64,000 nucleotides of DNA, from positions 7,685,501-7,749,500 of the forward strand of contig NC_092602.1 of the NCBI RefSeq assembly GCF_047663525.1. Direction: 5' to 3'. Source of the DNA: Anas platyrhynchos (Eukaryota; Chordata; Aves; Anseriformes; Anatidae). The translations under genes were made by a program, and so were the position numbers. Shown one piece after another: positions 8,165 through 54,394 of this stretch. Each line of letters begins with the position of its first letter. Within the stretch, counting starts at the first letter, position 1. The notes below the pieces were generated by a model. The model worked only from the letters and a program-made list of their open reading frames with translations. It had not been told where the DNA came from and searched no databases.

Positions 8165-8605
8165 TTAAAATAAAGAATAAATAATAAAAAAAGAAAAAAG
8201 GAAAAGGGAAATTAAAAAAAAAAAAAAAAGGAAAAGGGGAAAAAAAAGGGAAAGAAAAAAAAGAAAAAGGGAAAAGAAAAAGAAAAAAAAAAGTGAAAAG
8301 GGAAAAGAGAAAAAAAGGAAAAGGGAAAGAAAAAAAAGAAGGGAAAAGAAAAGAAAAAGTGAAAAGGGAAAAAAAAAGGAAAAAGAAAAAAAGGAAAAGG
8401 GAAAAGAAAAGGGAATGAAGAAAAAAGGAAAAGGGAAAGAAAAAAAAGAAAAAAGGAAAAGAAAAGAAAAAAAGGAAAGGGAAAGAAAGAACATAAAATA
8501 AAAATTAAAAAAATAAAATAAAAATTAAAAATAAAATAAAAAATAAAATAAAAATAAAAAATTAAAAATAAACAATAAAATGAAAATAAAAATAAAAAAT
8601 AAAAT
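8165..8605. repeat. Purine-only tract (GAAAAGGG-type) grading into AAAATAAA repeats
   Basis: About 330 bp of almost uninterrupted A/G on the plus strand, mainly variants of GAAAAGGGAAAAG, is followed by about 110 bp of (A)n-T repeats. The open frame on the opposite strand is a Phe/Ser/Leu low-complexity artefact. It sits between the PXN 3' end and the RPLP0 promoter. Confidence 0.9.
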
Positions 8606-13000: not shown

Positions 13001-16000
13001 AGTAGCAGCGAGGGGAGAAGAGGTTGTGATAGTCCTTCTCGCAGTAGGGCTGCCCATCCCGCTCAAAGAAGTTCCGTGACCCGATCTCCTCCTGGCAGTG
13101 GGTGCAGACGAAGTGCTCGGGGTGCCAGGTCTTCCCCATGGCTGTAACCACCTGTTGGGAAGACAACTTATGAAGGACACCTCTACCTCGCTCTCCCCTC
13201 GGCCACATGACAAGTTACCAGCTGGAGATCAGCAAGAATGACAAGATCTACTACTCAAGTGAGCCCTGGACTGGGGTAGCATGAAAACTGAATTACCTAT
13301 CATCTCAGGAGAGGGCAGTCCCTCAAGGGCAGGGTAGAGGTCACTGGAGGAGCTTACAGCGTACCTAGCCAGTGGATAAATAGAGTACTTCAGTTTCTCC
13401 AGCATCTCCAGTCCCTTCAGCCTCACGAAAAAGCCCTCCCCGTTACGCCCAGCTGCAGCCCAAGCTTCAGCAGAGGGGTGGCACCTTCGACCCACCTGCC
13501 CAGCGATCGGCTTCTTGCAGGCTCCGCAGACGCCCTTGGCAACGGTCGCTACTCCCAGCTTGTTCAGGTCAGACTGGAGACTTCCCAGCATGGTGTCCAG
13601 CTGGCTGCCAGGTTTGGGGGTTGTGGACGGCGGGGAGCTGCTGCCGGCTTTCCCCTGCGCCATGAACTGCAGGGAAGAGAAAACAGCGGCTGTAAGGCAA
13701 GCGGTGCTGCCCTAGCCTGGAAAAGGGCTGCTGTCGCTGCCAGCGGCTCTTCTGCAGACAGGAGATTGCTAGGAGACAGCTATGCTCGCTGCAGAAGCCG
13801 GTGAGAGCCAGGATTGAGTACACACACAAATTCTGCCCATGCAGAGGCCCTGGGATGTGTAAGAGCAGAGCTGCGAACTAAGGATCTGCCTTTCCTTTGC
13901 TGCACGCAGAGCAGAAGTTACTCGCAGACCCCAAGCAGTCGGTACAGGGCTCTCTAAGCCTCTGCCAAAAATCTCCCTTCACCTCATCAGCTCCTGGCCA
14001 GCTGACAAAGCAGAGACGCCAGCCGAGGGCCTCTTCCCCTTGACCTCTCTCTGCTCCTGCACTGCTGCTCGCTGTCATCCTCTCCGACAGAGACCCCTCT
14101 CCTCCCCAGGCTCCATCTCCCCCTCAGCCAAAGCACCTCTGCTCCTCCCTTCCCCGCGGCCCCGCTCCGTGCTGAGTCTCCCTCGCCCCATCAGGTGGCT
14201 CTCAGCCCACGCCGAAGCCGAGCAAGTGGAAGCAGGAAGGAAACGGTCGGAGTTGGTGTTTACCTACAGAGAGGGCAGTGCCTCCACGGCAGCAGCGTAC
14301 AGCGAACACTGCCACGTCTGTTGGAAATGCACACGGGTTGCTGGGGAAGGGGATCGGGGAAGGGGATCGCCCGACTGGTCTCAGAGGCAGGTTCTGGAGC
14401 TCACAGCACAAGCGGCTCACACCTTCCCAAAGAAGGCCAGGGGGAGAAGCTTTACTTAGGTTTGTAACTTGGGAATCAAGTATGGGTGCTCTTGGGGCAC
14501 CAAAGCCCCCTTTGCAGGCAAACTGCAATAACGAGGTTGAGATTATCTCAGCTGACTGCACTGCGCTGCGATGCCTACTGCCAGGTTTAGAGACTCAGAA
14601 GTCGTCCCTCCCTGAGATGTCAGCCTGGAGCAGGTTTTCTCCTACCAAGAGCACAGATTAAGCACACAGACATCAAATCCATGCCTGCAAACACCCCCCC
14701 AGCCTGCTGCCATTGCAGCCGGGGAGCAGGACACACTGAAGCACCTCAGAGCCTGGCAGAAACCCCCCTCCCAGCCCAGGAGCTCTGCTCCTCATCCTGC
14801 TCGCGCTTGCAGTCAACCAGTTAACTCAGTGGCAAACCCCAGTTTCCACTTGTTTGCACAAAATTTCAGGCCACACACAATTTTAGCTCCCCATTGGAGC
14901 CCAGTGCACGACCTGTCCCCCTCTATTCAGCTATGAGCTCAAGGAGCAGCACACCACACTCCACAAAAAGCATCAGCTCCGCTCCCCACGCTGGGAGCTG
15001 CACGTGCACCCCCAGAAGGGCACACCATGCGGACAGAAAGCAGGTCCTGCCTTCTCAGGGCTGGGGGCACCCAGGGGTGCCGGAGCAGCCAGCAGACTGG
15101 CACTGCCGACGAGGGGAGGAGCGGAGGTCACCTGCAAAGCACAACAGGTCACGATGCAGAGGCTTGATCCCACCATCTCCTCCCCAAACCCACTGGCACT
15201 GGGGACAGCCAGCCACACAGACTAATATAGTAAGACTTGAGATTTTTGGTGTCTTTTTTCATCCCTCTCCCTACTTCAAGGAGAATCACAGCAGGGAGAG
15301 CTGAGCCCTAGCTTCAGAGCCACCTTTTTTATCTCAGCGGGAAATAAAGCCAACGTGATCCCTGCTGCACAAAGTGCAGGCAGGAAGCACACGCACCCCA
15401 GTGATTATTGCAGACGTGCACTGTGCCAGACAGGCAGAGCTGGGATTGATTTGTTACCAACGGCTCTGCTCTCCTACCACACCTCAGCACCAGCCTTTGC
15501 CTCAACATCTACTGAGCCACCAAGCTTGGAGTAGTGGTTGGACTGGACAAGATTGTGCTAAAAAGAAAAAGAAAATAAACAGAAAAGACAAGCCTGCCTG
15601 CATCTGTGGGAAGAAAGCCTCATCTTCAGTCTGACAGCCAACAGAAACAACTGTCTTGGTGCTAGGGGTCCAAGGCTGGGGAGAGGAGCGCCCAGGATCT
15701 TCAGAAGGAGGGGTGCCCCCACCAGAAAGCTCATGATAATCATCAGCAGAAGTCTCCCACTGGAAGAGAGGCTGGGGAGCCAAGCTGAAGGAGGAGGAGG
15801 AGGCCGGAGGAGGAGCAGAGGTAGATGGTGGGTGGGAAGGCTGAGGTGGGAGAGGGAGGAGAGGTGTGGGGCCAGGGACATGAGGGGCAGCAGCGTGAGC
15901 AGGGGCTGTCTTTGCAGCTTCTGTGGAAGGCAGGAGCGGGGGAGAGGCTGAAACAGAGACCGTCCTCCTCGGGGGGTGCGGGGACTCTGGAGGGAAAACC

Positions 16001-19000
16001 ACCTAGAAAGACACGGAGGAAGAAGAGAAGTGAATAAAGCCAAAGAGGAACCAACAAGCACCTCCTGCTCCAGGAAGGCTGGGAGCACGGAGCAGGCGAT
16101 AACCCAGTCTTTACTGCCCGGTGCTCTCCCCCTTCCTCTTCTGAACCTCCTGGGGTTTGCACCCAAGCACGAACAGGACGTCAGCCTCATAACCACGGCC
16201 AAGCACAAGTGGGTAAGAACAGAGGCTGCTGGTTTTTACCTTCTTTGTCTAAGGGGAAAAAGCAGCAAAAAAGCAAGGGGCAAGGAACTAGAAAACTTGT
16301 TTCTCTGCGTCGCTCTGAGGAGGAGCAGCATCTTCCACCCAGAACTTCCTGCAGAGGCAGGAAACAAAGCTTGCCTCTATGCCAGGCCTCCCAGCATGGC
16401 TCCCAGATAATCCCCACGTGGATATTTGATATGCAACAGCAGCAGACCCAAACAGATACCACTACCAGGGCCCTCAGGTACTACTCCAATTCCTAAACAA
16501 GGAGAACTAGGACCCAAGAGCCAATTCCCTTTTCAGGTCAGGCAAGGGGGAGCAGGAAGAGCTAGTTCTTCATTTTGTCTTGCTTAGGACACTCAGAGTG
16601 AACCTGCACCTCCACGCCATGCTGGACAGAGGGGCATGCTGGCATTTCCCAAGACATGCCCCTCCTTTCTACCTTCTCTACTTGCTGTCCACCATTCTGC
16701 TCCTCTCCCTGGGGTGTGGCAGTGATTACGACCCCCTCTGTCAGCCAGTCATCCTGGCTTTTCCACTCCTCCTGTTCCTCCTGCTTGGCGATGCCCAGTC
16801 TGTCCTGCAGCTCCTCAATCAAGCGATCTTGGGACTCTGACTTGTGAAAGATCGCAGGACCTAGCTTACGCCTTGGAGAGAGGTCCCGATTCATGGGATG
16901 CACATTCGAGGTCTCTTTTGTCCTCTTGATTAAAGACTTAATCTAAATGACAAAGGTAACAGTGTCAGCAGAGAAGAGCAAGGTAGGGGCAAGCCTCAAG
17001 ATGCAACAGCACAAACTCAGGCTATTAGTGACAGCTGTGAGCAGAGCAGGAAGAGTGATGACATTTCTTCCACAATGCCAAAACTCCTTTTGGCACAGCC
17101 CAGAACAGTGACTCAGTGCAAGGAAAAACCCCGTAAGGATAATCACTGCAGCCAAAAATAACTATCTAGAAAAGGAAGGGAAAGATTACCCAGCAGGAAG
17201 CCAAGATAGGAGGTGCAGCACGACTGCTCCGCAGAGCATTAAAGAACCCTCAGCATCGCAGGGACACGCAGCAGCCTCTCTGTGTCTGCCCTTTGCAGGG
17301 AGAAGGCTCTGGGTCAGAGATGGCTGGTGCACAGAGCACACTTGCAGGGCTGGAAGGAACACTGACTGGTCTGGCAACAAGACCTAAAAAGGCTCAGCAG
17401 AGCGGAGGAGCTGCCATCCCAAGTCAGGAACAACCTCCAGAGGCACGAAGCAGCCCTTCAACTTTTCAGAGGCCATTTGCCTTGTTCCAATCAGGGAATA
17501 AAACTCCCCTTCACAGGGCAGTCCCTGCAGCCTGCCGTGCTCTGTCCTGCTCACCGGCATGCAGAGGAGGCCACAGGACAGAGCAGGGGACCTGACACAT
17601 CCATGACATGCAGCTGGGCACTGCATGCTGTTAGTGCGGGTGAGCCCAGGCGCTCTCACAGCACACACAAACGTTAGTGAGCTGTCAGCTCAGGCCTGGA
17701 CTCATCCTGCTCCCGCATTCGTGCGGTGCCTGCCTGGCCCGATGCAGAGATCCTCTCAATGGGTGCTTTGGAGACGTGCAGCTGATCCCAGTCGGTTTTC
17801 CAAAGGTTTTCAGGAGGTTGGGGAGCAACCACAGAGCTTGTGAACTGCTCGTTTTCCTGCTCTCCTCTGGCTTTGGTCATGGTAGCAGCTCCTGACTTCC
17901 GAGGAGTTCTCCCTCTGCTCTGCCTCTTCTGGCCCAGATCAGGACAGCCATCTACTTGGATTTCACGTGGAGCTTTTAGCTCCTGTCCTTGCTCCACAAC
18001 AAATCCCAACTGTTTTTTAGTGTCTGGGAAGATGTCCCGCCGATCCAGGGCCATGACAGAAGGTTCACACACAGGACTCAAAACCCTCTCATGCTTTGCA
18101 TGTACTTCTGGCAGATGCTCGGCCAGCTCCAGGGCCCAGAGCTCATCTAAAGCTGTTTCCACACTTTTGCCCTGAGAAGGAAGGGCTGAATTATCCCTGA
18201 ATGCTCCCTGCTGGCCCGGGTCTTTTGCTATCTGCCTGTTCCCTTGACCAGTATTTGAGATCGGGACACTTGAGATTTTGGGGTCTGTTCTCTGCTCCTT
18301 TTTCTCACTCTCTTTTGCCAACTCCAGGCCTTGTGCCTCCACCTCATCAGACCTACACAGAAACTCCATGCTGGAAGCTGGCACGGCCTGGGAAGCCTTT
18401 CTAGATGAGTCAGGCTTTCTGCTCAGCCTAACCAAGCCTGCAGAGGTCAACTGCTCCCCACGAGCAGCAGAAGAGACACGCGGAGGGGGCACAGGGACCG
18501 TTTGTGGCAAAGAAGGCACGCGTGTAGGAGCAGCAGAATGCCCTGAAGCAGGCAGAGCTACAACGTGACTGCCTTCCCCAGCTGAGGGGGCAGATGTTGG
18601 TGCTGCCAAGTCCCCGCTGTGACTCGCAGAAGGGTGTTTGGAAGAGCAAAGCACTGCTAAGCTGTGATGAGAGTCGCTGGAGTCTGCGTCTGCTGAGCTG
18701 GGAACCAGTTCTGGGGAGGGCTCAGAAATCAGAGAGATAGTGGAACTAGTCTGCAAGGAGACAGAAGGAACAAGGAAAAAAAACAAAGACAGAAGAAAGG
18801 GAAAAAATAAGCATGGTATACAGCATTGTAACAACTGGGACCTCTAAATCAAAGAGCCATGTCAGTCCAGAGTCTTACATCAGAGAACGAGGAATGAGAA
18901 CGAGATATCAAAGAGCAGAACTAACGTGACAGCGTGCTGATCTTTGCATGAGATCACAGGATATGAAGCTCTACAGCCATCAAGGTCCTTTTTCTATGCT

Positions 19001-22000: not shown

Positions 22001-25000
22001 CCAATAATGACAACATACAGAATGTGTTAGGTATTTGCTTCTCCAGCTCTCTCAGAATAAATTCAAGTGAATAATTCAGCAAGGCTTTAAGTGAACCAGC
22101 TGAAGGTAGAAAGCAAGAACATTTTTTGCTATGATTGTGGGTAAATGAAATAGCATGAAAATAAACTCCAGTTAATCACTTAGTGTCAGAATGATAGCAT
22201 ACTTCTATGAATAAGAAATGTCTGCGTTTATAAATCATCCAAAGATGTATGCCAAAAATTTCATCAAGATGACCACAGACAAGTTACTCCCCTGCTCATC
22301 CTATTATGGGATTTTCTATGTGCCACTCACAACTGAAGCACCGGTAGCGGTTCCTTTCCAGTGCAATAGGTTGACTTGTAAACACAATTCTGAACACTGT
22401 TTGCTATCCTCCACTCCCCAAGAAGCTCAGCCTTTAACTCTTTTTTGAGCTGAACAAGTGATACTGTTTTCAGGTGGAAACCTTTGAAGCCTCCAGCTGT
22501 TTGATGCAAAGGCTTTGGTGTTCGTACCACATGCCTTCAAGCCCCTAACACACCTCCTCAGGGAAAGCACATCAGCATAAAAATGCATTCCAGAGGGGGC
22601 CATCCCATAGAACAGGAGAGCCTGGTCTCTGTCAATAAGCAGATGGTGTCCCATGCTCCCCTACTTCTTGTTAAGTTGAAGCACAGCAAAATAATTCACC
22701 CTGCACTGAGCAGTAACTGAGCTCATTATCTTTGCCAAACACGGACAAACTGCAGGATGGAAGGAAAAACAGACCCCAGAACTGCCTTACCCATGCCAGT
22801 GATGAGAATTTATAGAAGTCAAGAACCTACAGCAGCACACAAAGTGCAAATAACCCCAGAGGAACTTTTTCCGAGTAAGGATGAGAGGTAAAGAGGCCAT
22901 TTGGGAGACCAAATAAGGTCAGCAGACGCGGCCAACAGGCAAGAGACTCTGGACATGGGGAGGGACAAGATGAAGTATAAGTTGTGAAGATGGGGCACCT
23001 TAAAGTCGGAGAGGGAGGCCATCAGCTCATCCAGTTCTCGTGTAGCTGAAGAAGCAGATATACGGGTCTGCTGTTGGCTGGCAGTGACACGCTGGGGGCT
23101 GCTCACTTCTCCTTGGCTCACAGTGATTGCAGGGCTGACAAGAAAAAAAAGAAAAAGAGTGCATTTAGGTACAGGGGAGCCCTCCTAGACTGAAAGTCCC
23201 ACTGTTCCCCCAAAACAAGCACAGCACAGCAACTTTCACCAGCACAGCCCCCCCCGGCCAGCCCTCCTCCCAGATCCAACCTCCACGCCACACACAGGTC
23301 TCCTCTCTCTGCCACATCTAACGAGCGAACATGCACATACACCTCAGCCATGAAGGCAGGGACTGTGACCAAACATTTCTTTCACCAGACAGCGGGTATC
23401 TGTGATCAATTATAAACCCAAGTTCAGCATGCTGCTAGTGACATAATGTGTTATTTTTTCCATCCAGGAAGAGATGCAGTAGATAGAAGAGCACCAGCAT
23501 CCTCACATGCCTGTTGAATTTCCCACCCTTCAGACAAATCCCATCTTCTGTCCGTCATTGCCCTATAGCATCTGTCCCTCCCCTACCTCACTACTCCCAC
23601 AAGAGCCCGTCCAGCCCCAGGGAAGCCAGCAGCCCCCAAAGGACCACTTACACTGGACTTGGCACTGAGCTCTCCAGCTCATCCAGCAGGCTCTCCACAC
23701 TGGGACGCACGTCCTCGATCCCACGCCCGCCATTCCGCTTTGGTTTTTCTTTTGTAGGGGGTGCAGCCTTCCCTCCCACAGAGCTGCTGCTCTCTGGGAT
23801 GACATAGTGGGGTCCAGTCACGCCGGGCAGTGATGGGCTTCTGCTGGCCTCGTCTTTAGAAAGGGGGAGCAAAAAAAGAGTAGCTCAGACACATAGGTCC
23901 ATACATACACGCAGATCAGAGGGAAGAGCAATGCGCTGCCCAGAAACCTTGTGGAACTTCCATCTCTGAGGATATTCAACACTTAAATGCACAAGGACTT
24001 GAGCAGCATAATCTAACTTTGAAAGTGTGCAGTTAGAGCCAATTTTAAAATTGGAACCAAGTTTGAGTATGGTGCTGGACCTCAAGAGATCCCACCCATG
24101 CTAAATGAGTCTTCGACTGGGGCTTGGGGGCATCTCCCTCAGAAGGGATGTTGGAAGGAGAAAGTAGGCTATTACTTTGGGAAGCAAACTATCTACTAAT
24201 ACCAAACGTCTTCCTACTCCTTACCTGCTGGGAAGCCACTTGGGGGATTATGTTGAACAGCATTCAGTTCCAGGAGAAGCCTGTCCAGTTCTGAGAGGTT
24301 GCTGCCCAGAGAGGTGCTGGTCATGGTGGGAGATGGTTCTGCAGACTTCTGCTTGTTTGGGAAACTAAAAATAAAAGAGAAGCACAAAACTTCTACTTCA
24401 AGATACAGCAGAAGAATGGAGGGAAATCTGTGTTAGGTTGGTAGAGTTTACACATGTATTGTGTAATTTTCAAACTGGGGCTTTTAGACCAGTGGGGAAA
24501 GATGACGCATGCTTTGTGAAGTGACCATCAACAGAGCTGCTGCTTAGCCACAGCTTCAGTTTGCTCAGCCACGTCTTCATTTGTCAGTTACAAAGAAACA
24601 GCACTGATAGACAGGGGCTTGGATTTTCAGGACCGCGTGCTGCACAGCCCTGTAGCAAAGAGTTAACTGTCTGCAGATCCAAGATGCACAGAACAGCAGC
24701 AGAACCATTAGCTGGCATACGGGAAAATTACTTGTTTCTGCTGACATCACAGCGAGCAGCAAATAACTCCTCTGAAACAAGGGGATGCAGGGCCAGCACA
24801 GACTGGAGAGGAGGCAAAGTACAAATCTCAAGCTAGCAACAAAAAGCCAAAAGTGGCAGGTTACGTGGCAACCTTTTGCAGCACACAAGGTCTCTTTTCA
24901 AGTCCTCAAACCTTTAATTGGGGGAATTGTAACCAATTTATAAGGAAGTAATTTGAAAGCATTTTCCACCACGTTAAACACAGGCCTTTAAAGTTTACCT

Positions 25001-33300: not shown

Positions 33301-36300
33301 CTGACTTCCCAAACTGTGGGCAAAACAAGGCATCCACCTGCTGTGCCCAGCTCCGCCAGGCTGCAGAGAGAGCCTACACCTCGTGACAGACACCTTGCTT
33401 TCAGCGTCACCTGGTGGCACAGCCACCCCGAAGCCCCCATGCCAAAAGCAGGTGGCTTGCCCCAGCCCAGCAGCCCACGCAGGCAGCTTTGACCACCAGT
33501 AGCAGTTTAAGGCCAGACCAGACACTGCCCTGGGCTGTGGTCTGTGCTATCAGCTGCAGCAATGACCGTGGCTTCCTGCCCCGACCGCTGAGACCCAAAC
33601 AGAAAACTTTATTCCAGGGCTTGTGGCCAGCTAACTGCTCCTCACCGCCCCAGCACGGGGCGGAAGGAGCACACAACACGGCCAGTTCGAGGGGATTTTG
33701 GTACCTGTGTGTCTGTCACTGCTCGCCACACGTTTAGAGATGAGGTTTGAACCCTGCAAGTGCTCCGGCCACAGTTCCTGCAGAGCTGCCACCTGCACAT
33801 GCTGCTGGTGGAGGGAAGGGCCCAGCCATCACCGAGCTCACTGTGCTCACAGCCAGACACTTCCGAAACTATTCCAGCCTAGAAACTCTGAGAAAGTTAT
33901 TATTTTCAGATAGACTCACTACGTTTCTTGGAAGCACAGCCCCGGCCACTCTACAGCTTAAAACATTTCCTAAGAGCTGTGTAAAGAGAGCGATGCCAGA
34001 ATTCAGCCCTTCTCTAGACTGACAGACTAAAACTTTTGCCTGGGACAGGAAACCCCGGACCTCCACCTCCGAAGCTCAGGCCAGGCCACCAAGTGACATC
34101 CAGCCCCGTCCTGCCACCAGCTGAAGGAAGTCGCCCATCCTCCTGTCCAAATCCCACGATTGTTCTGCGCCTCCGATGCTGACCACAAAATCCGCAGCCT
34201 GAAAAGGGAACAATCAGGCAAACCCCAACACACTTAAATTCCAGAGCCATCCCTCACCACTACCAGCCACTTCCCCGACACTTTATTCCAGCCTTGCAGT
34301 CCCAGGGCCGTACGACTCAACCACCCACAGCATCCCTCCGAGGGGCGCAGGCAAGAAGGCTGTCTGTGTGTATGCTGGGAAAACAGAAAGGTCGCTGCGA
34401 GATCCTTCCTGGAACCGGCCACGCCACGCCACTTCCTTTCACATTAACAGGAAAATGTCACTGAGACGCCCAACTGCCCCGTAACCTCAGCCACGGGGCA
34501 CTGGTCAGCAGGCTGGTGGCGTGATGCTGCCAGCATCACGAGGGGCAGCTAATTCCTGTGTGACCGAGGGCATGGGCAGAGGCTGCAGGGAGCAGCTGAC
34601 ACCACAAATCCAGGGGAACCAGAGCCCCTTCTCCTTGAAGGAGCAGCTCCCATCCACCTCTCGCCATCCCTGATGCGACAGGCTGGGAAATCCTCCCAGA
34701 GTTGGCTCCGCTCGCTCCCCAAGCTGGCAGGACGGTGATGGCAGGAAGGTGACCTGCCCTTAGCCAGGCCCACAGGGCATGGGATCAGAATCGCAGCTCA
34801 CAGGCTGCCAGGCCAATGCTGCAACTGCCTCGAGCTCTGAGTCAGCACAGCTTCCTGGACAAAACAACGCCTGAAGTCCAAGCTGTGTGAAGGAACCACA
34901 AAAGATTTTCCTGTAGGATCAGAATTTTTCCATTTAGCTCTCAAAACACTCAATTAGACCCCAGCTCGGGCTGAGGGAAGCGAACCACCACCTAGCAGAG
35001 GAATGCACAGTCATACTGCCTTCCTCCAGCTTGCCTAGAAAAACCTCCACACCCTTTCTGCTATCTCAGAACAGCTCACGAGGGCGCCTCGCATCATCCC
35101 TGTCATTAGCGAACACTTTGTAGAGGTTTTCCCTTCACACAAACTGATACAAATGAGACTCACCCTTAAAACTTTTTAACCCTCTGAAAATGCTAAGTCT
35201 GTACTTCAAAGGAATCAGGCAGCTCACGCGTGTGCTGACACTAGTCAAGTCTCACAAGGCACATAACAAACGGAGGGGAATGTTCCTCAGTATGTGTTTG
35301 TTGAGCATCCTCCCGCTGGAAGTGGTTTGAGATTTAAGCAACTCCTTTCAGAAGGGATGTAGTCAATGCTCCTGAAAAAGAAGGCTCAGGAAGGTTACCA
35401 GACCAACATCCAAAAGCAAACATGGCTTTGTGAATCCTGGACGTCACTGGAACAGAACTTATTCCAGTCAAATGCCACCAAAGGGAAGCCTTTCCAAATT
35501 CTTTCAAATTTGGCAACTCCACGGCTGGGGCTACCTCAGTAGGAAGCTCTCAGCAGAAACACCAGGAGCAACAAGCTCTTAGTGGCTCGGAGGATTTAAG
35601 GACAGCTGCAGCTACACAGGACCATAGAGGACCTGAGCTGCCCGCTGTGTTCCTCACGTCCTGCCTCCAGAGAGGAGCGCTCGAGCCTAGCAGCAACACC
35701 GCGACATCTCCGGTTTCAGAGCCGCTCCCGCCCAAAGGTGTGTCCTCCTATTTATTGCTCATTTCCAGAACTTTCTGGGGAGGGTGGGAGGGAAGAGCTA
35801 TTTCCTGTCATATACAGCATCCTCTTTTTAATAGCGTGGTTTTCCCCACACTTGAAGTGAAAGGAGCCATCTTATATTTACTTCCCTCTGTTCGAATTTA
35901 TAGTCCCGAGCAGCAAACCGAGCTCGTCCCGGGAAAAAACACCCTTTGTTAAGGCCTGGTGCCTCGGACTGAGTTCATGCTCTGACTCCCTAGGCAGATG
36001 AATGTTTTCAGTTTCACAGCCACCAAAGGCTGTGGGGCACGCCAGACCCCCAGCTACACAAGCCTTGGATGCCTCTGCGCAGCAGCTCGCAGAGGACCCC
36101 AGTTGGGTGAAGCTAAAAGGGAAAATAAAATAATCCCTCGCATGGTTCCTCCCCGCTTCTCCCTGCGCTCTCAAACCGAGCCCCGAGCAACAGGAAACGA
36201 TTACCAAACATGGATAAGCTCGGGCAAAAAATTCTTCCACTGCTCTACGAGCAATCTTCAGGAAAAGTTCGGAAAGTTTGCGAGTCACAGCCCCGGCACG

Positions 36301-39300
36301 TCCTGTGACCGGCACACACAAGCGGCAGGCAGAGCTCAGCTCGCCGCTCGCACGCGGCCTCGGAGCACAAAGCCAGGCTCTGGCTTACTGGGCAGAGAAG
36401 CTGGAGATTGCACAAGAGATTTCTGCAGTACGTGAACCACTTCAGAGATTTAGCCAGATTTTACTCAGCGTTTGAGCTTGTGACCTCCAGTGATTCAGCT
36501 GCTCCTGACTGAGGCACTTCAGCCCTCAGCCCATCGCCCTACCCACAGTTAAGGCGCCCAAGGCAGCCCTGGAGGCCATTTTCAGCCCCATTTCTCAGTC
36601 ACAGCAGTTGAGAGCTCCACACCTTAAACCTAAACCTCCGAGTGCCTCCATCCGACAGAACAGGCTGTGACCTGCAGCAACAAAGCCTGCAGCCGCAGCA
36701 CCCGAATTCCAACGGGGCTCAGCATAGCAGGATCCTTACCATAAGGTCCAAATCCCCTGGGCAGCAGGGAAGTCATCTGCCTCGCAGAATCAGAGAAGTG
36801 ATACGCAGCAGCCCAATATAACACGGACTGGCCGTGTTATATCAGAATAGAAAGCTGAAGGCTGCCCTTCAGGCCCCAACTAAAAATACTTAAGCTGGAA
36901 TTTCTCAGCCTGATTCCGCAGCCTGCGATGAGCCCCACCTGCTACCGAGTCTTTTGTCAGAATCCTCTCCTTTCGGCAGCAAATAAACCCGTGGTCCTAC
37001 AGGTTGGTATAGTTGGCCCTGAAGACGATTAAAAGAAGCAACCAACTGCACAAATTAGAGAGTCTCCATCTCCCCAGCACCAAATTGGAAACAGCTTTGG
37101 TCTCCAAGCAGGGTAAGTACAGCCTGACAGCCCTCTCCTAGCGTGGCCCTTCTTGAGCAAGATCTATTTCTGCTCTCTGCCTGGGAGCAAACAGATCCTC
37201 AGGCATTCCCGGCAAGTCCCAGACAGAGGCATTAGCACACGGCCAGCGCTGCCCCGGCTGTCCCTGCGAGGGAGGCGAGCTGGCTCGGGCAGAGCTGAAG
37301 GACACAAGCTCTGCTACAACACGGCCCCGCTGGGGCTGAACACGAGCGAAGTGGCACCCTGCCCGCCTGCAGTGGGAAAGGACTGGAATGAGTGTACGTG
37401 TCTGACACGAGTGACTAAGTAGGCACTACCAGTTCAGTTCTGACCCGGCCTGGGTTGCAGCCAACATCTCGGGTGGGAAAAAAAAAATGTAAGAGAAATG
37501 AACTGCCAATGCGCTAACCTTTAGCCCTCTATCTACCCTTATGCATGCAAAAAAGGGCAAGTAAAGCCTCCCCATACATGTCCTAAGAATTTTTATTTGC
37601 GGCTGGTTTCCTTCAGAAAGTTTCTAGAAACGGAGCAATGTTAAAAAAAATCCAACAAGATCTGCTCTCCTCTGCCAAAACAAAAAAATATTCATGAAAA
37701 CCAAACAAGCAGCCACTGAGCTGACCCCTCGGGGACAATTTCCCAGGGCCAAGCCTCTGATCAAAATACCAAGTCCCTTGTACTCCTACAGGAAGAGGGG
37801 CTCAGCCAAGCCAGCTATCTGAGGAACCAGACCCTTCCTGCTCCATCAGCAGGCAGTTACTCCACAAGCATCATTAGGTCAAATGCAGCACGCAGCCATT
37901 TCACAAACATCGACCAAGCCCAGTAGGAAGGAGGCCTCCATTAAAGAGAGCAGAGAGTCCAAGGATGGGTACAGAAACCTCAGGAAACTAGATTTTAAAG
38001 CACAGCTCTGGCAAAGGAAAGGAGAAGCTCAGGGACACTCCTAGTGCTGCAGCTGTTCAGTCAGACAACAGGAACGGGTGCAAGTGGACAGTAAGAGCAC
38101 CACAGTACTGGGAAATTTATCGTAGCCTACCGTGCTGCCACCCCCAGCCAAGCTGCTCTCTTCCAGCCAGACACACCAGGTGGATGCCATACAACGAATA
38201 TCTTGGCAAAAGTCATTTTGCCCTCCCTGTGCAGGGAAAGGTTCCCTCTACCTATCCTTTTTCTTCTCTGGCAGCACGTGTATGTCTCTGCCAGCAGAAA
38301 TCCCTTCCTCTTTCGGAAAGGAAGTAACCAGGCTGGGCAAACTGTTCTCAGGTCTTTCTGGAGAACTGTACAAATACAGTAGGCAAGAGGGAAACAAACT
38401 CCCTTCAGTCGTGTGCTGCACACTGCTCAGCCCCAGACTGCAGGACCTGGAGGAAACCACCGAGTGCAGAGGTGTGTGGCACCCAGCCACTTCCCAGCAG
38501 CTCTCCACACGCCCACTCACATGAGGGTGGACATTTTTAACTGCATTTTTTAAAGCCCCAGGTGGACTGTGTCTGGTTGAGATTTGCATACCTGTAAGCA
38601 GTCGGATCCGACGTGAACTCAGTGTTGTTACAAGCAGCACTGAAATTACAACATACATGTATGCTAATCTGGTAGCAGGTAACTCTTCTCAGCAGGTTCT
38701 AAGCATTATCCCCGTGCCATACACCTTGGCACATCAGAAGAGCTTGAAAAAGGCAGCGGCTTCCAAATCTGCGGGCAATGGCGACCCTCTTTTGCTTGCA
38801 CTTCAGGGCCCTCGGGTGGAAATGACAAGTTTGCAGATTTGACCATCTAAAAGGACACCTTACAACAGCTGTGGAGCACTTACCGCTCGCAGATCATAAT
38901 TTGGGAACTGCTGATTCTACTCATCTGGGGAAGAAAAACATGTTACATCAGGGCTTACATGGGAACAGAGTACAATAGTTCCACTGGACAGTGAGCACCA
39001 GAGCTGAGGATACAGTTTCACAGGATGCAGAACGGCAAATTAACAGCTCACCACTGCCAAAAATGGAGAGGTTTCGCTCCCTCTTCCAGACATGTGCTGC
39101 TGCCACTTACCTCTCTTGGCTCTGGCTTTTACAAGACCCCTCCATGAACCAATTGAACAGAATATACAAAAAAAAAAATGAAGACTTTCTTCTGAGTTAA
39201 GAAAGTGAGATAAGCACAGGGGTCAGCAAAAAGGAAGGGGTATGTCCAAAGAGCCAGGGGAGGCAGCAGATAGAGGACATAAGATGAGGGAGGTAGAGCC

Positions 39301-50290: not shown

Positions 50291-50665
50291 GCCCCGGCCC
50301 CCCTCAGTCCCGCCAGCCCCCTCAGTCCCCTTCAGCCGCCTCAGTCCCCCCTCAGCCCCCCTCAGTCCCCCCTAGCCCCCTCAGCCCCTATCAGTCCCCT
50401 CAGTCCCCTCAGCCCCCTCAGTCCCCTTACCCCTCTCAGCCCCTCTCAGTCCCCTGGGTCCCCCTCAGTCCCCCCTAACCCTCCTTAGTCCCCCTCAGCC
50501 TCCCTCAGTCCCCTCAGCCCCCCTCAGTCCCCCTCAGACCCCCTCAGCCCCTCTCAGTTCCCCTCAGTTCCCCTCAGTCCCCCCTAACCCTCCTCAGTCC
50601 CCCTCACTCTCCTCAGTCCCCCCTCAGCCCCCGTCAGCCCCCCTCAGTCCCCCTCAGCCTCCCGG
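50285..50665. repeat. CCCCCTCAGT polypyrimidine minisatellite
   Basis: About 380 bp of variants of CCCCTCAGTCC and CCCCTCAGCC, roughly 8-12 bp each. It lies directly upstream of the PXN promoter and is G-rich on the PXN sense strand. The open frames over it are repeat by-products. Confidence 0.9.
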
Positions 50666-53597: not shown

Positions 53598-53742
53598 TCA
53601 GTCTCCGTAGAGACTGTCAAAAATTGCCAATGCCGACTATATTTCAAGTCGTCATGGCGGGGTATTGGGAAAAGTTTTCAATTAGCAATAATCGCGCCTC
53701 GGATTAACCTCATTGGCTACGATACTGCCACTGCGCAAAGCT
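53598..53742 (-). ncRNA. RNU4: U4 spliceosomal snRNA, copy 1
   Basis: U4 pairs with U6 in the U4/U6.U5 tri-snRNP and keeps U6 inactive until spliceosome activation. The minus strand starts AGCTTTGCGCAGTGGCAGTA and keeps every U4 landmark. These are the stem II strand, the 5' stem-loop kink-turn (CAATGAGG...CCGAGG) that binds SNU13/15.5K, and stem I (TTGCTAATTG). The AAAACTTTTCCCAATACCC segment, the central stem-loop, the Sm site AATTTTTGA (53617-53625) and a 3' stem-loop with a UACG tetraloop are also present. Length is about 145 nt, as in human. Octamer- and PSE-like elements and a 3' box are at the right distances, so it looks functional. Paralogous copy 2 lies about 650 bp upstream. Human RNU4-1/RNU4-2 occupy the matching place between PXN and SIRT4, as I recall. 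Confidence 0.97.
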
Positions 53743-54249: not shown

Positions 54250-54394
54250 GCAGCCTCCGGAGAGGCTCTCAAAAATTGCCAATGCCGACTGTATTTCAAG
54301 TCGTCATGGCGGGGTATTGGGAAAAGTTTTCAATCAGCAATAATCGCGCCTCGGATTAACCTCATTGGCTACGATACTGCCACTGCGCAAAGCT
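54250..54394 (-). ncRNA. RNU4: U4 spliceosomal snRNA, copy 2 (variant)
   Basis: The minus strand starts AGCTTTGCGCAGTGGCAGTA and is nearly identical to copy 1 over the first ~125 nt. Differences are A to G in stem I (TTGCTGATTG), T to C in the central stem-loop (GAAATACAGTC), and several paired changes in the 3' stem-loop (AGCCTC/GAGGCT with a UCCG loop). The Sm site is intact (54269-54277). The paired substitutions indicate selection on structure, so it is probably a working gene and not a pseudogene. I recall a linked chicken pair called U4B and U4X; this may be the equivalent of the variant. Confidence 0.95.

What the first reader, a model, noticed from the sequence alone, without database searches (positions are those of the whole stretch)
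15598..18750. PXN carries three in-phase cassette exons that would double the protein's disordered region
Seen: three minus-strand open segments (405, 261 and 1017 nt) in the LD4-LD5 intron. Each is a multiple of three, phase 0 at both ends, with good acceptors. Together they would add 561 residues to the 558-residue core (1119 aa). Known: short paxillin variants arise at the same joint in mammals. Inferred: a long, regulated paxillin form whose function is little described.
Basis: partly seen in the sequence, partly recalled or inferred. Interest (0 to 1): 0.8.

Follow-up and report, generated by a model that had tools for sequence, protein, structure and literature searches.

The report
Probable long form of paxillin
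A bird cell-adhesion gene (paxillin) carries, between two of its normal exons, at least two probable optional protein-coding pieces that would make a much longer paxillin; a long paxillin is already reported from mammalian heart-muscle cells, so this looks like the bird counterpart, with hints of extra docking helices inside it.

Summary
They are not equally strong. A (18750-17734) lies in a 389-codon frame that 0 of 500 shuffled introns reach. B (16942 to about 16673) has the second-best coding score of 309 frames. C (16002-15598) shows no coding signal.

A and B each hold one predicted amphipathic helix resembling paxillin's LD motifs; A's match depends on LD3. Three GCATG (RBFOX-type) sites follow each of the A and B donors, none in the 300 nt before either exon. 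Reviews report an RBFOX1-promoted extended paxillin, ePXN, in cardiac muscle cells.

Most likely A and B are weak-donor, RBFOX-promoted cassette exons of the bird ePXN; C is undecided. Main rival: A splices at a strong GT donor (17555) past an in-frame stop, as a poison exon. No RNA or other species could be examined.

The parts
22999..23134 (-). PXN exon 6 (LD4), the upstream constitutive partner; lowest-scoring of the ten constitutive PXN donors (AAG|GTGCCC, 3.65 bits; the next lowest is 3.80)
17734..18750 (-). Exon A, 1017 nt, phase 0-0, 339 aa; strong acceptor (12.4 bits), GC donor CAG|GCAGGC; the open frame runs on to a stop at 17676-17674
   Evidence: 389-codon frame, 0 of 500 shuffles; splice scores; one match in own genome
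18079..18165 (-). LD3-like predicted helix in exon [19 protein letters not shown] and on
   Evidence: PSSM P 0.0105, lost if LD3 is left out; AF2 helix, residues 13-40 of fragment 18198-18001, ten-residue block pLDDT up to 82
17558..17628 (-). RBFOX-type sites downstream of exon A: GCATG at 17628, TGCATG at 17612 and 17563
   Evidence: at least two TGCATG in 1.3% of 250-nt windows of this strand
17555..17555 (-). Rival GT donor CCG|GTGAGC (9.0 bits), 119 nt beyond the in-frame stop of A
16673..16942 (-).
   Evidence: codon score 0.33 bits/codon, its open frame ranks 2 of 309; acceptor 6.3, donor 4.5 bits; one match in own genome
16796..16837 (-). LD-like predicted helix in exon [15 protein letters not shown]
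   Evidence: PSSM P 0.0035, 0.002-0.015 with any one LD motif left out; AF2 helix residues 36-49, block pLDDT 80
16618..16659 (-). Three GCATG sites (16659, 16639, 16622) downstream of the exon B donor
   Evidence: at least three GCATG in 60 nt in 0.07% of windows, both strands
15598..16002 (-). Segment C, 405 nt, phase 0-0, 135 aa, GC donor; unproven as an exon
   Evidence: acceptor 10.1 bits; codon score about 0; frame length not significant
13496..13666 (-). PXN exon with LD5, the downstream constitutive partner

Best explanation
A and B are genuine coding cassette exons of bird PXN, inserted in frame between LD4 and LD5. Their donors are weak, so by default the LD4 exon splices to the LD5 exon and makes ordinary 558-aa paxillin (inferred). 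Where an RBFOX protein is abundant (in mammals heart muscle; in the bird inferred), it binds the GCATG clusters just downstream of the A and B donors and promotes their inclusion, giving an extended paxillin of 987 aa with A and B, or 1122 aa if C is also real. The insert is mostly disordered by its make-up (inferred) and adds two LD-like amphipathic helices between LD4 and LD5, likely to alter how the scaffold docks LD-binding partners or the exportin CRM1 (inferred).
For: Frame of A: 0 of 500 shuffles. Codon score of B: its frame is 2nd of 309, and B scores 0.33 bits/codon against 0.02-0.36 for eight known PXN exons. Phase 0 and no inner stop through the combinations tried: A, A+B, A+B+C, B, C. 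Strong acceptor for A; lowest constitutive PXN donor score at LD4, narrowly. GCATG clusters downstream of A and B and none within 300 nt upstream of them; at least three GCATG per 200 nt in 0.67% of positions of the window. LD-like peptides: A and B rank 5th and 6th of 189 open frames of 100 aa or more, behind LD4, LD5, LD1 and one other frame. The only helix of 4 or more residues in each AF2 model coincides with that peptide. A, B and C each find one match, themselves, in the 1.26-Gb genome, so they do not look like repeats. An RBFOX1-promoted extended paxillin by inclusion of Pxn exon 6 or 7 is reported (PMC12490864, passages); A would be the seventh exon here.
Against: The A donor is GC; the best in-phase B donor ranks only 47th of 569 GT sites in the intron. 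A synonymous-codon-only score trained on 30 receptor genes of this genome gave A -0.10 and B 0.01 bits/codon; known LD3 and LD4 exons also score about zero, so it discriminates poorly, but it does not help. The N-terminal third of A has no coding score (-0.10). A's LD match vanishes without LD3 (P 0.58) and weakens without LD5 (0.17). A frame in intron 1 (36384-35881) outscores both in the LD scan, and 0 of 300 shuffles of it reach its score, so such peptides do turn up elsewhere. Neither LD-like peptide meets the strict consensus. AF2 confidence is low overall (means 64.8 and 60.6) and used single sequences. The reversed B peptide scores higher than the forward one in 5 of 6 profile versions. 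The RBFOX search was made after reading of ePXN; single GCATG-type sites also occur 203 nt after LD4 and within 300 nt before LD5. No RNA or other species was seen.
Confidence: 0.6

Rival explanations
1. A is a poison or truncating exon: it is spliced at the strong GT donor at 17555, past the in-frame TAA, so the mRNA encodes LD1-LD4 plus 358 residues without LIM domains (636 aa) or is removed by nonsense-mediated decay.
For: 17555 CCG|GTGAGC is the 4th best of 569 GT sites in the intron and a GT where the A donor of the long-form reading is a GC; the stop lies 119 nt before that donor, far enough for decay by the usual 50-55 nt rule (recalled).
Against: A poison exon needs no 358-codon open frame before its stop. 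One TGCATG ends a few bases before that donor and another lies about 50 nt before it, where bound RBFOX would be expected to hinder rather than help it (sites; effect inferred). The reported mammalian product is described as an extended protein. No AATAAA occurs in 23000-13000 on this strand, and the two ATTAAA (21104, 19470) lie upstream of A, so A is unlikely to be a 3'-terminal exon.
Confidence: 0.15
2. All three exons A, B and C are real and included together, as the first reader proposed (1119-1122 aa). This overlaps with the best explanation and differs from it only in C.
For: C has a good acceptor (10.1 bits), is in phase, and its donor CAG|GCAGGC is the same nine bases as that of A; the two tie for 5th and 6th of 675 GC sites in the intron. 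The end of C ([14 protein letters not shown]) looks protein-like and resembles dynein-light-chain-binding xQT motifs (recalled; found by pattern only).
Against: Codon score of C about 0; frame length within chance; no LD-like peptide (P 0.42); no GCATG in the 300 nt after its donor. A different frame is open over 225 codons across the same C-rich stretch, itself uncommon in shuffles (a longest frame of 226 or more in 1.4%), so long frames there may reflect composition.
Confidence: 0.35
3. The segments are chance open frames or decayed exons in a long intron and are never spliced into mRNA.
For: Weak or GC donors for all three; synonymous codon usage gives no support.
Against: Frame length of A, codon score of B, LD-like helices and downstream GCATG clusters point the same way.
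Confidence: 0.13

Closest known systems
Extended paxillin (ePXN), RBFOX1-promoted inclusion of Pxn exon 6 or 7 in cardiac muscle cells
   Same: Cassette inclusion that extends paxillin; the exon number fits the place right after the LD4 exon; RBFOX-type sites downstream of the exon.
   Different: The sequence and length of the mammalian exon could not be seen (Zorn et al. 2024 is not held), so homology with A or B is not shown.
Human paxillin beta and gamma isoforms
   Same: Inserts downstream of LD4 (PMC5316197, passages); that it is the same joint is my reading together with recall.
   Different: Inserts of 34 and 48 aa against 90-339 aa here; the recalled human beta insert has no significant match in this intron (best E 0.54).
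LD motifs of the paxillin family (LDXLLXXL)
   Same: Predicted amphipathic helical peptides scoring well against the five LD motifs of this gene.
   Different: Each departs from the strict consensus: VETALDEL in A, QDRLIEEL in B; LD3, which A resembles, shows only minimal binding to the FAK FAT domain (PMC12175908, passages).
Metavinculin
   Same: An optional coding exon lengthens an adhesion protein in muscle under RBFOX1 control (PMC12490864, passages).
   Different: Different gene; a single 68-residue insert in the actin-binding tail domain (abstract start in a search listing) rather than a long disordered insert.

Membership tests
Extended paxillin (ePXN) | Frame-keeping cassette exon next to the LD4 exon of PXN | tested here: met
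   A follows exon 6, phase 0-0, no inner stop in the joined reading frame; that it is used as an exon is not shown
Extended paxillin (ePXN) | RBFOX-type sites in the intron downstream of the exon | tested here: met
   GCATG/TGCATG clusters downstream of the A and B donors
Extended paxillin (ePXN) | Sequence homology with the mammalian ePXN exon | not testable with these tools
   Primary paper not held; no vertebrate genome other than the window's own was available
Extended paxillin (ePXN) | RNA inclusion in muscle, raised by RBFOX | not testable with these tools
   No RNA data
LD motif | Strict consensus LDXLLXXL | tested here: not met
   A has V at 0, E at +1 and A at +3; B has Q at 0 and I at +4 (peptides)
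LD motif | Profile similarity to the LD motifs above composition-matched shuffles | tested here: inconclusive
   B P 0.002-0.015 with any LD motif left out; A P 0.001-0.58, depending on LD3
LD motif | Amphipathic helix | tested here: inconclusive
   Helix predicted at both sites from single sequences with low overall confidence
LD motif | Binding to an LD-binding domain (FAT, vinculin tail, GIT, parvin) | not testable with these tools
   Needs peptides and binding assays
Paxillin beta/gamma insert | Insert of 34 or 48 aa after LD4 | tested here: not met
   Inserts of 339, 90 and 135 aa; recalled beta sequence without significant match; gamma sequence not tested
CRM1 export signal | Hydrophobic spacing pattern above chance | tested here: inconclusive
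   Patterns LDELWALEL and [11 protein letters not shown] present, but P 0.107 and 0.087 with L/I only, and 37 of 240 frames of 90 aa or more in the window have such a pattern

The most novel reading that the evidence does not exclude
The insert turns paxillin into a seven-site scaffold: exons A and B each carry a hidden LD-type helix (A resembling LD3, B resembling LD2 but also readable as an inverse LD motif), switched in together by RBFOX, so that splicing sets how many LD-type docking or nuclear-export sites a paxillin molecule has.
Probability: 0.2. Interest if true: 0.65.

Novelty: new member of a known kind. Interest (0 to 1): 0.4.

Why it matters
Paxillin is a much-studied adhesion scaffold, and its alpha form of 557 residues is the one usually described (PMC12175908, passages). 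If splicing adds roughly 430-560 residues and extra LD-type helices in some tissues, then LD4-LD5 spacing, partner docking and nuclear shuttling become splice-controlled. The bird locus gives concrete exons, donors, RBFOX-type sites and peptides with which to test that.

Tried and rejected
Pfam on the frames of A, B and C: nothing for A and C; B gave a sub-threshold Phage_terminase match (E 0.0098, 16 bits against a cut-off of 22), taken as chance. PDB sequence search: five weak hits for A that look unrelated (E 0.4 or more), none for B; C was not sent. Scans for relatives in viral contigs with A and B, and in genome contigs with A, found none; C was not scanned there. Paper searches for peptide strings of A and B found none (its one hit held only the LD1 peptide) and for accessions of long human isoforms found one irrelevant paper. 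A 3'-terminal-exon reading of A was dropped: no AATAAA in the searched stretch. The export-signal reading was kept only as a possibility. A synonymous-codon model trained on this genome was uninformative. A bacterial promoter and terminator scan says nothing here. In one search the first joined core had wrong borders and showed 4 stops; it was replaced and its base composition is not used. In one search the row C2 started out of phase; the in-phase value is its third entry, 0.047. In one search the row C2 is also out of phase; its second entry, -0.064, is in phase. Of all papers cited only passages or search listings were seen.
Full report
What was checked. PXN is on the minus strand: exon 1 at 50149-50137, then ten more coding exons down to 10017, together 558 codons. 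The LD4-LD5 intron is 22998-13667.

The observation. Joined as proposed they give 1119 codons; with the better B donor 1122; with A and B alone 987. Acceptor scores are 12.4 (A), 6.3 (B) and 10.1 (C), within the range of the ten constitutive acceptors, 5.5-13.8. The splice matrices are recalled, so the scores are relative. The donors are the weak point. A and C would use CAG|GCAGGC, which tie for 5th and 6th of 675 GC sites in the intron; B as given uses CAA|GTAGAG, 134th of 569 GT sites, while AAG|GTAGAA at 16673, also phase 0, ranks 47th. The LD4 donor scores lowest of the ten constitutive PXN donors (3.65 bits, the next 3.80), which fits a regulated joint.

More than chance? The frame around A has 389 codons; 0 of 500 dinucleotide shuffles of the intron reach that (coding strand, mean longest 145, maximum 258). 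The frames of B and C are of ordinary length: 77% of shuffles hold one of at least 126 codons and 20% one of at least 166. A codon score (recalled human codon table against local non-coding DNA) puts the open frame of B second of 309 frames of at least 80 codons, after a low-complexity A-rich frame, with 0.33 bits per codon for B ending at 16673, against 0.02-0.36 for eight known PXN exons. A scores 0.07 overall: -0.10, 0.13 and 0.19 in its three parts. C scores -0.01. Against this, a synonymous-only score trained on 30 receptor genes of this genome (10550 codons) gave nothing for A, B or C; it also gives about zero for the known LD3 and LD4 exons.

What is in the segments. A, B and C each find one match, themselves, in the genome, so they do not look like repeats. 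No Pfam family matches convincingly, nor any PDB chain for A and B (C was not sent). A profile of the gene's own five LD motifs finds VETALDEL in A (P 0.0105) and QDRLIEEL in B (P 0.0035), and nothing in C (P 0.42). Over all 189 frames of at least 100 aa in the window, A and B rank 5th and 6th, behind LD4, LD5, LD1 and one frame at 36384-35881 in PXN intron 1; that frame reached its score in 0 of 300 shuffles, so a high score alone is no proof of function. The LD3 frame is too short for that list (78 aa). Leaving out one LD motif at a time, B stays at P 0.002-0.015; A falls to 0.58 without LD3 and 0.17 without LD5, so A resembles LD3 in particular. The reversed B peptide scores higher than the forward one in 5 of 6 profile versions, which recalls the pseudo-palindromic, inverse LD motifs described in PMC7703752 (passages). 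AlphaFold2 on single sequences places its only helix of 4 or more residues over the A peptide and over the B peptide, at blocks of pLDDT about 80 in otherwise low-confidence chains.

Regulation. The reviews PMC12490864 and PMC13024003 (passages) report that RBFOX1 promotes inclusion of Pxn exon 6 (exon 7 in the body text of the first) and makes an extended paxillin, ePXN; the first cites Zorn et al. 2024, which is not held. They print the motif as (U)GGAUG; the RBFOX motif as I know it is (U)GCAUG (recalled). Here A would be exon 7. Downstream of its donor lie GCATG at 106, 123 and 172 nt, two of them TGCATG; downstream of the 16673 donor of B lie three GCATG at 14, 34 and 51 nt; there is none in the 300 nt upstream of A, B or C, and none in the 300 nt after C. 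One GCATG lies 203 nt after LD4 and one TGCATG within 300 nt before LD5. At least three GCATG within 200 nt occur at 0.67% of positions of the window, both strands; of 150 candidate donors in the intron 7 have this within 200 nt downstream (the call does not list which; the A and B donors meet it by their own counts). Sites downstream of an exon are the arrangement that favours inclusion (PMC12490864). I looked for them after reading of ePXN, so the prediction was specific but the windows were chosen by me.

Best reading. A and B are optional coding exons with weak donors, switched in by RBFOX, making the bird form of extended paxillin. Shown: frames, phases, scores and sites. Inferred: splicing, tissue, binding and function. 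Rivals: A as a poison exon through the strong GT donor at 17555 beyond its stop; all three exons in use; or no exon at all. The human beta and gamma inserts also lie downstream of LD4 but are 34 and 48 aa (PMC5316197, passages), and that review also mentions at least 26 further predicted variants, so a long form may well be annotated already; I could not check that.

Verdict. Partly confirmed observation, partly supported interpretation. The kind is known (ePXN); the LD-like helices and the downstream site clusters of the bird locus are the parts I did not find described, in the ten paper searches made here, which cover open-licence papers only.

Noticed in passing
53602-53742 and 54254-54394, minus strand: Two U4 snRNA genes in tandem, each a full-length Rfam match (131 and 127.8 bits), upstream of PXN exon 1.
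   Followed up: no
50299-50657: Tandem array of a 10-bp C-rich unit (about 37 copies, 74% matches) just upstream of PXN exon 1.
   Followed up: no
35881-36384, minus strand: A 168-codon open frame in PXN intron 1 ends with an LD-like peptide ([11 protein letters not shown]) that outscored A and B in the LD profile scan, 0 of 300 shuffles reaching it. The Pfam call that included it failed, so it is unexplained.
   Followed up: partly
15557, minus strand: The best-scoring acceptor of the whole LD4-LD5 intron (13.8 bits) lies 41 nt below the proposed end of C, too close to be the acceptor of an intron starting there; no exon was assigned to it.
   Followed up: no
8187-8604: Long A-rich tandem array on the plus strand (A/G and A/T units) below the last PXN exon; a frame in it (8181-8498) has the top codon score, which I take as an artefact of composition.
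   Followed up: no
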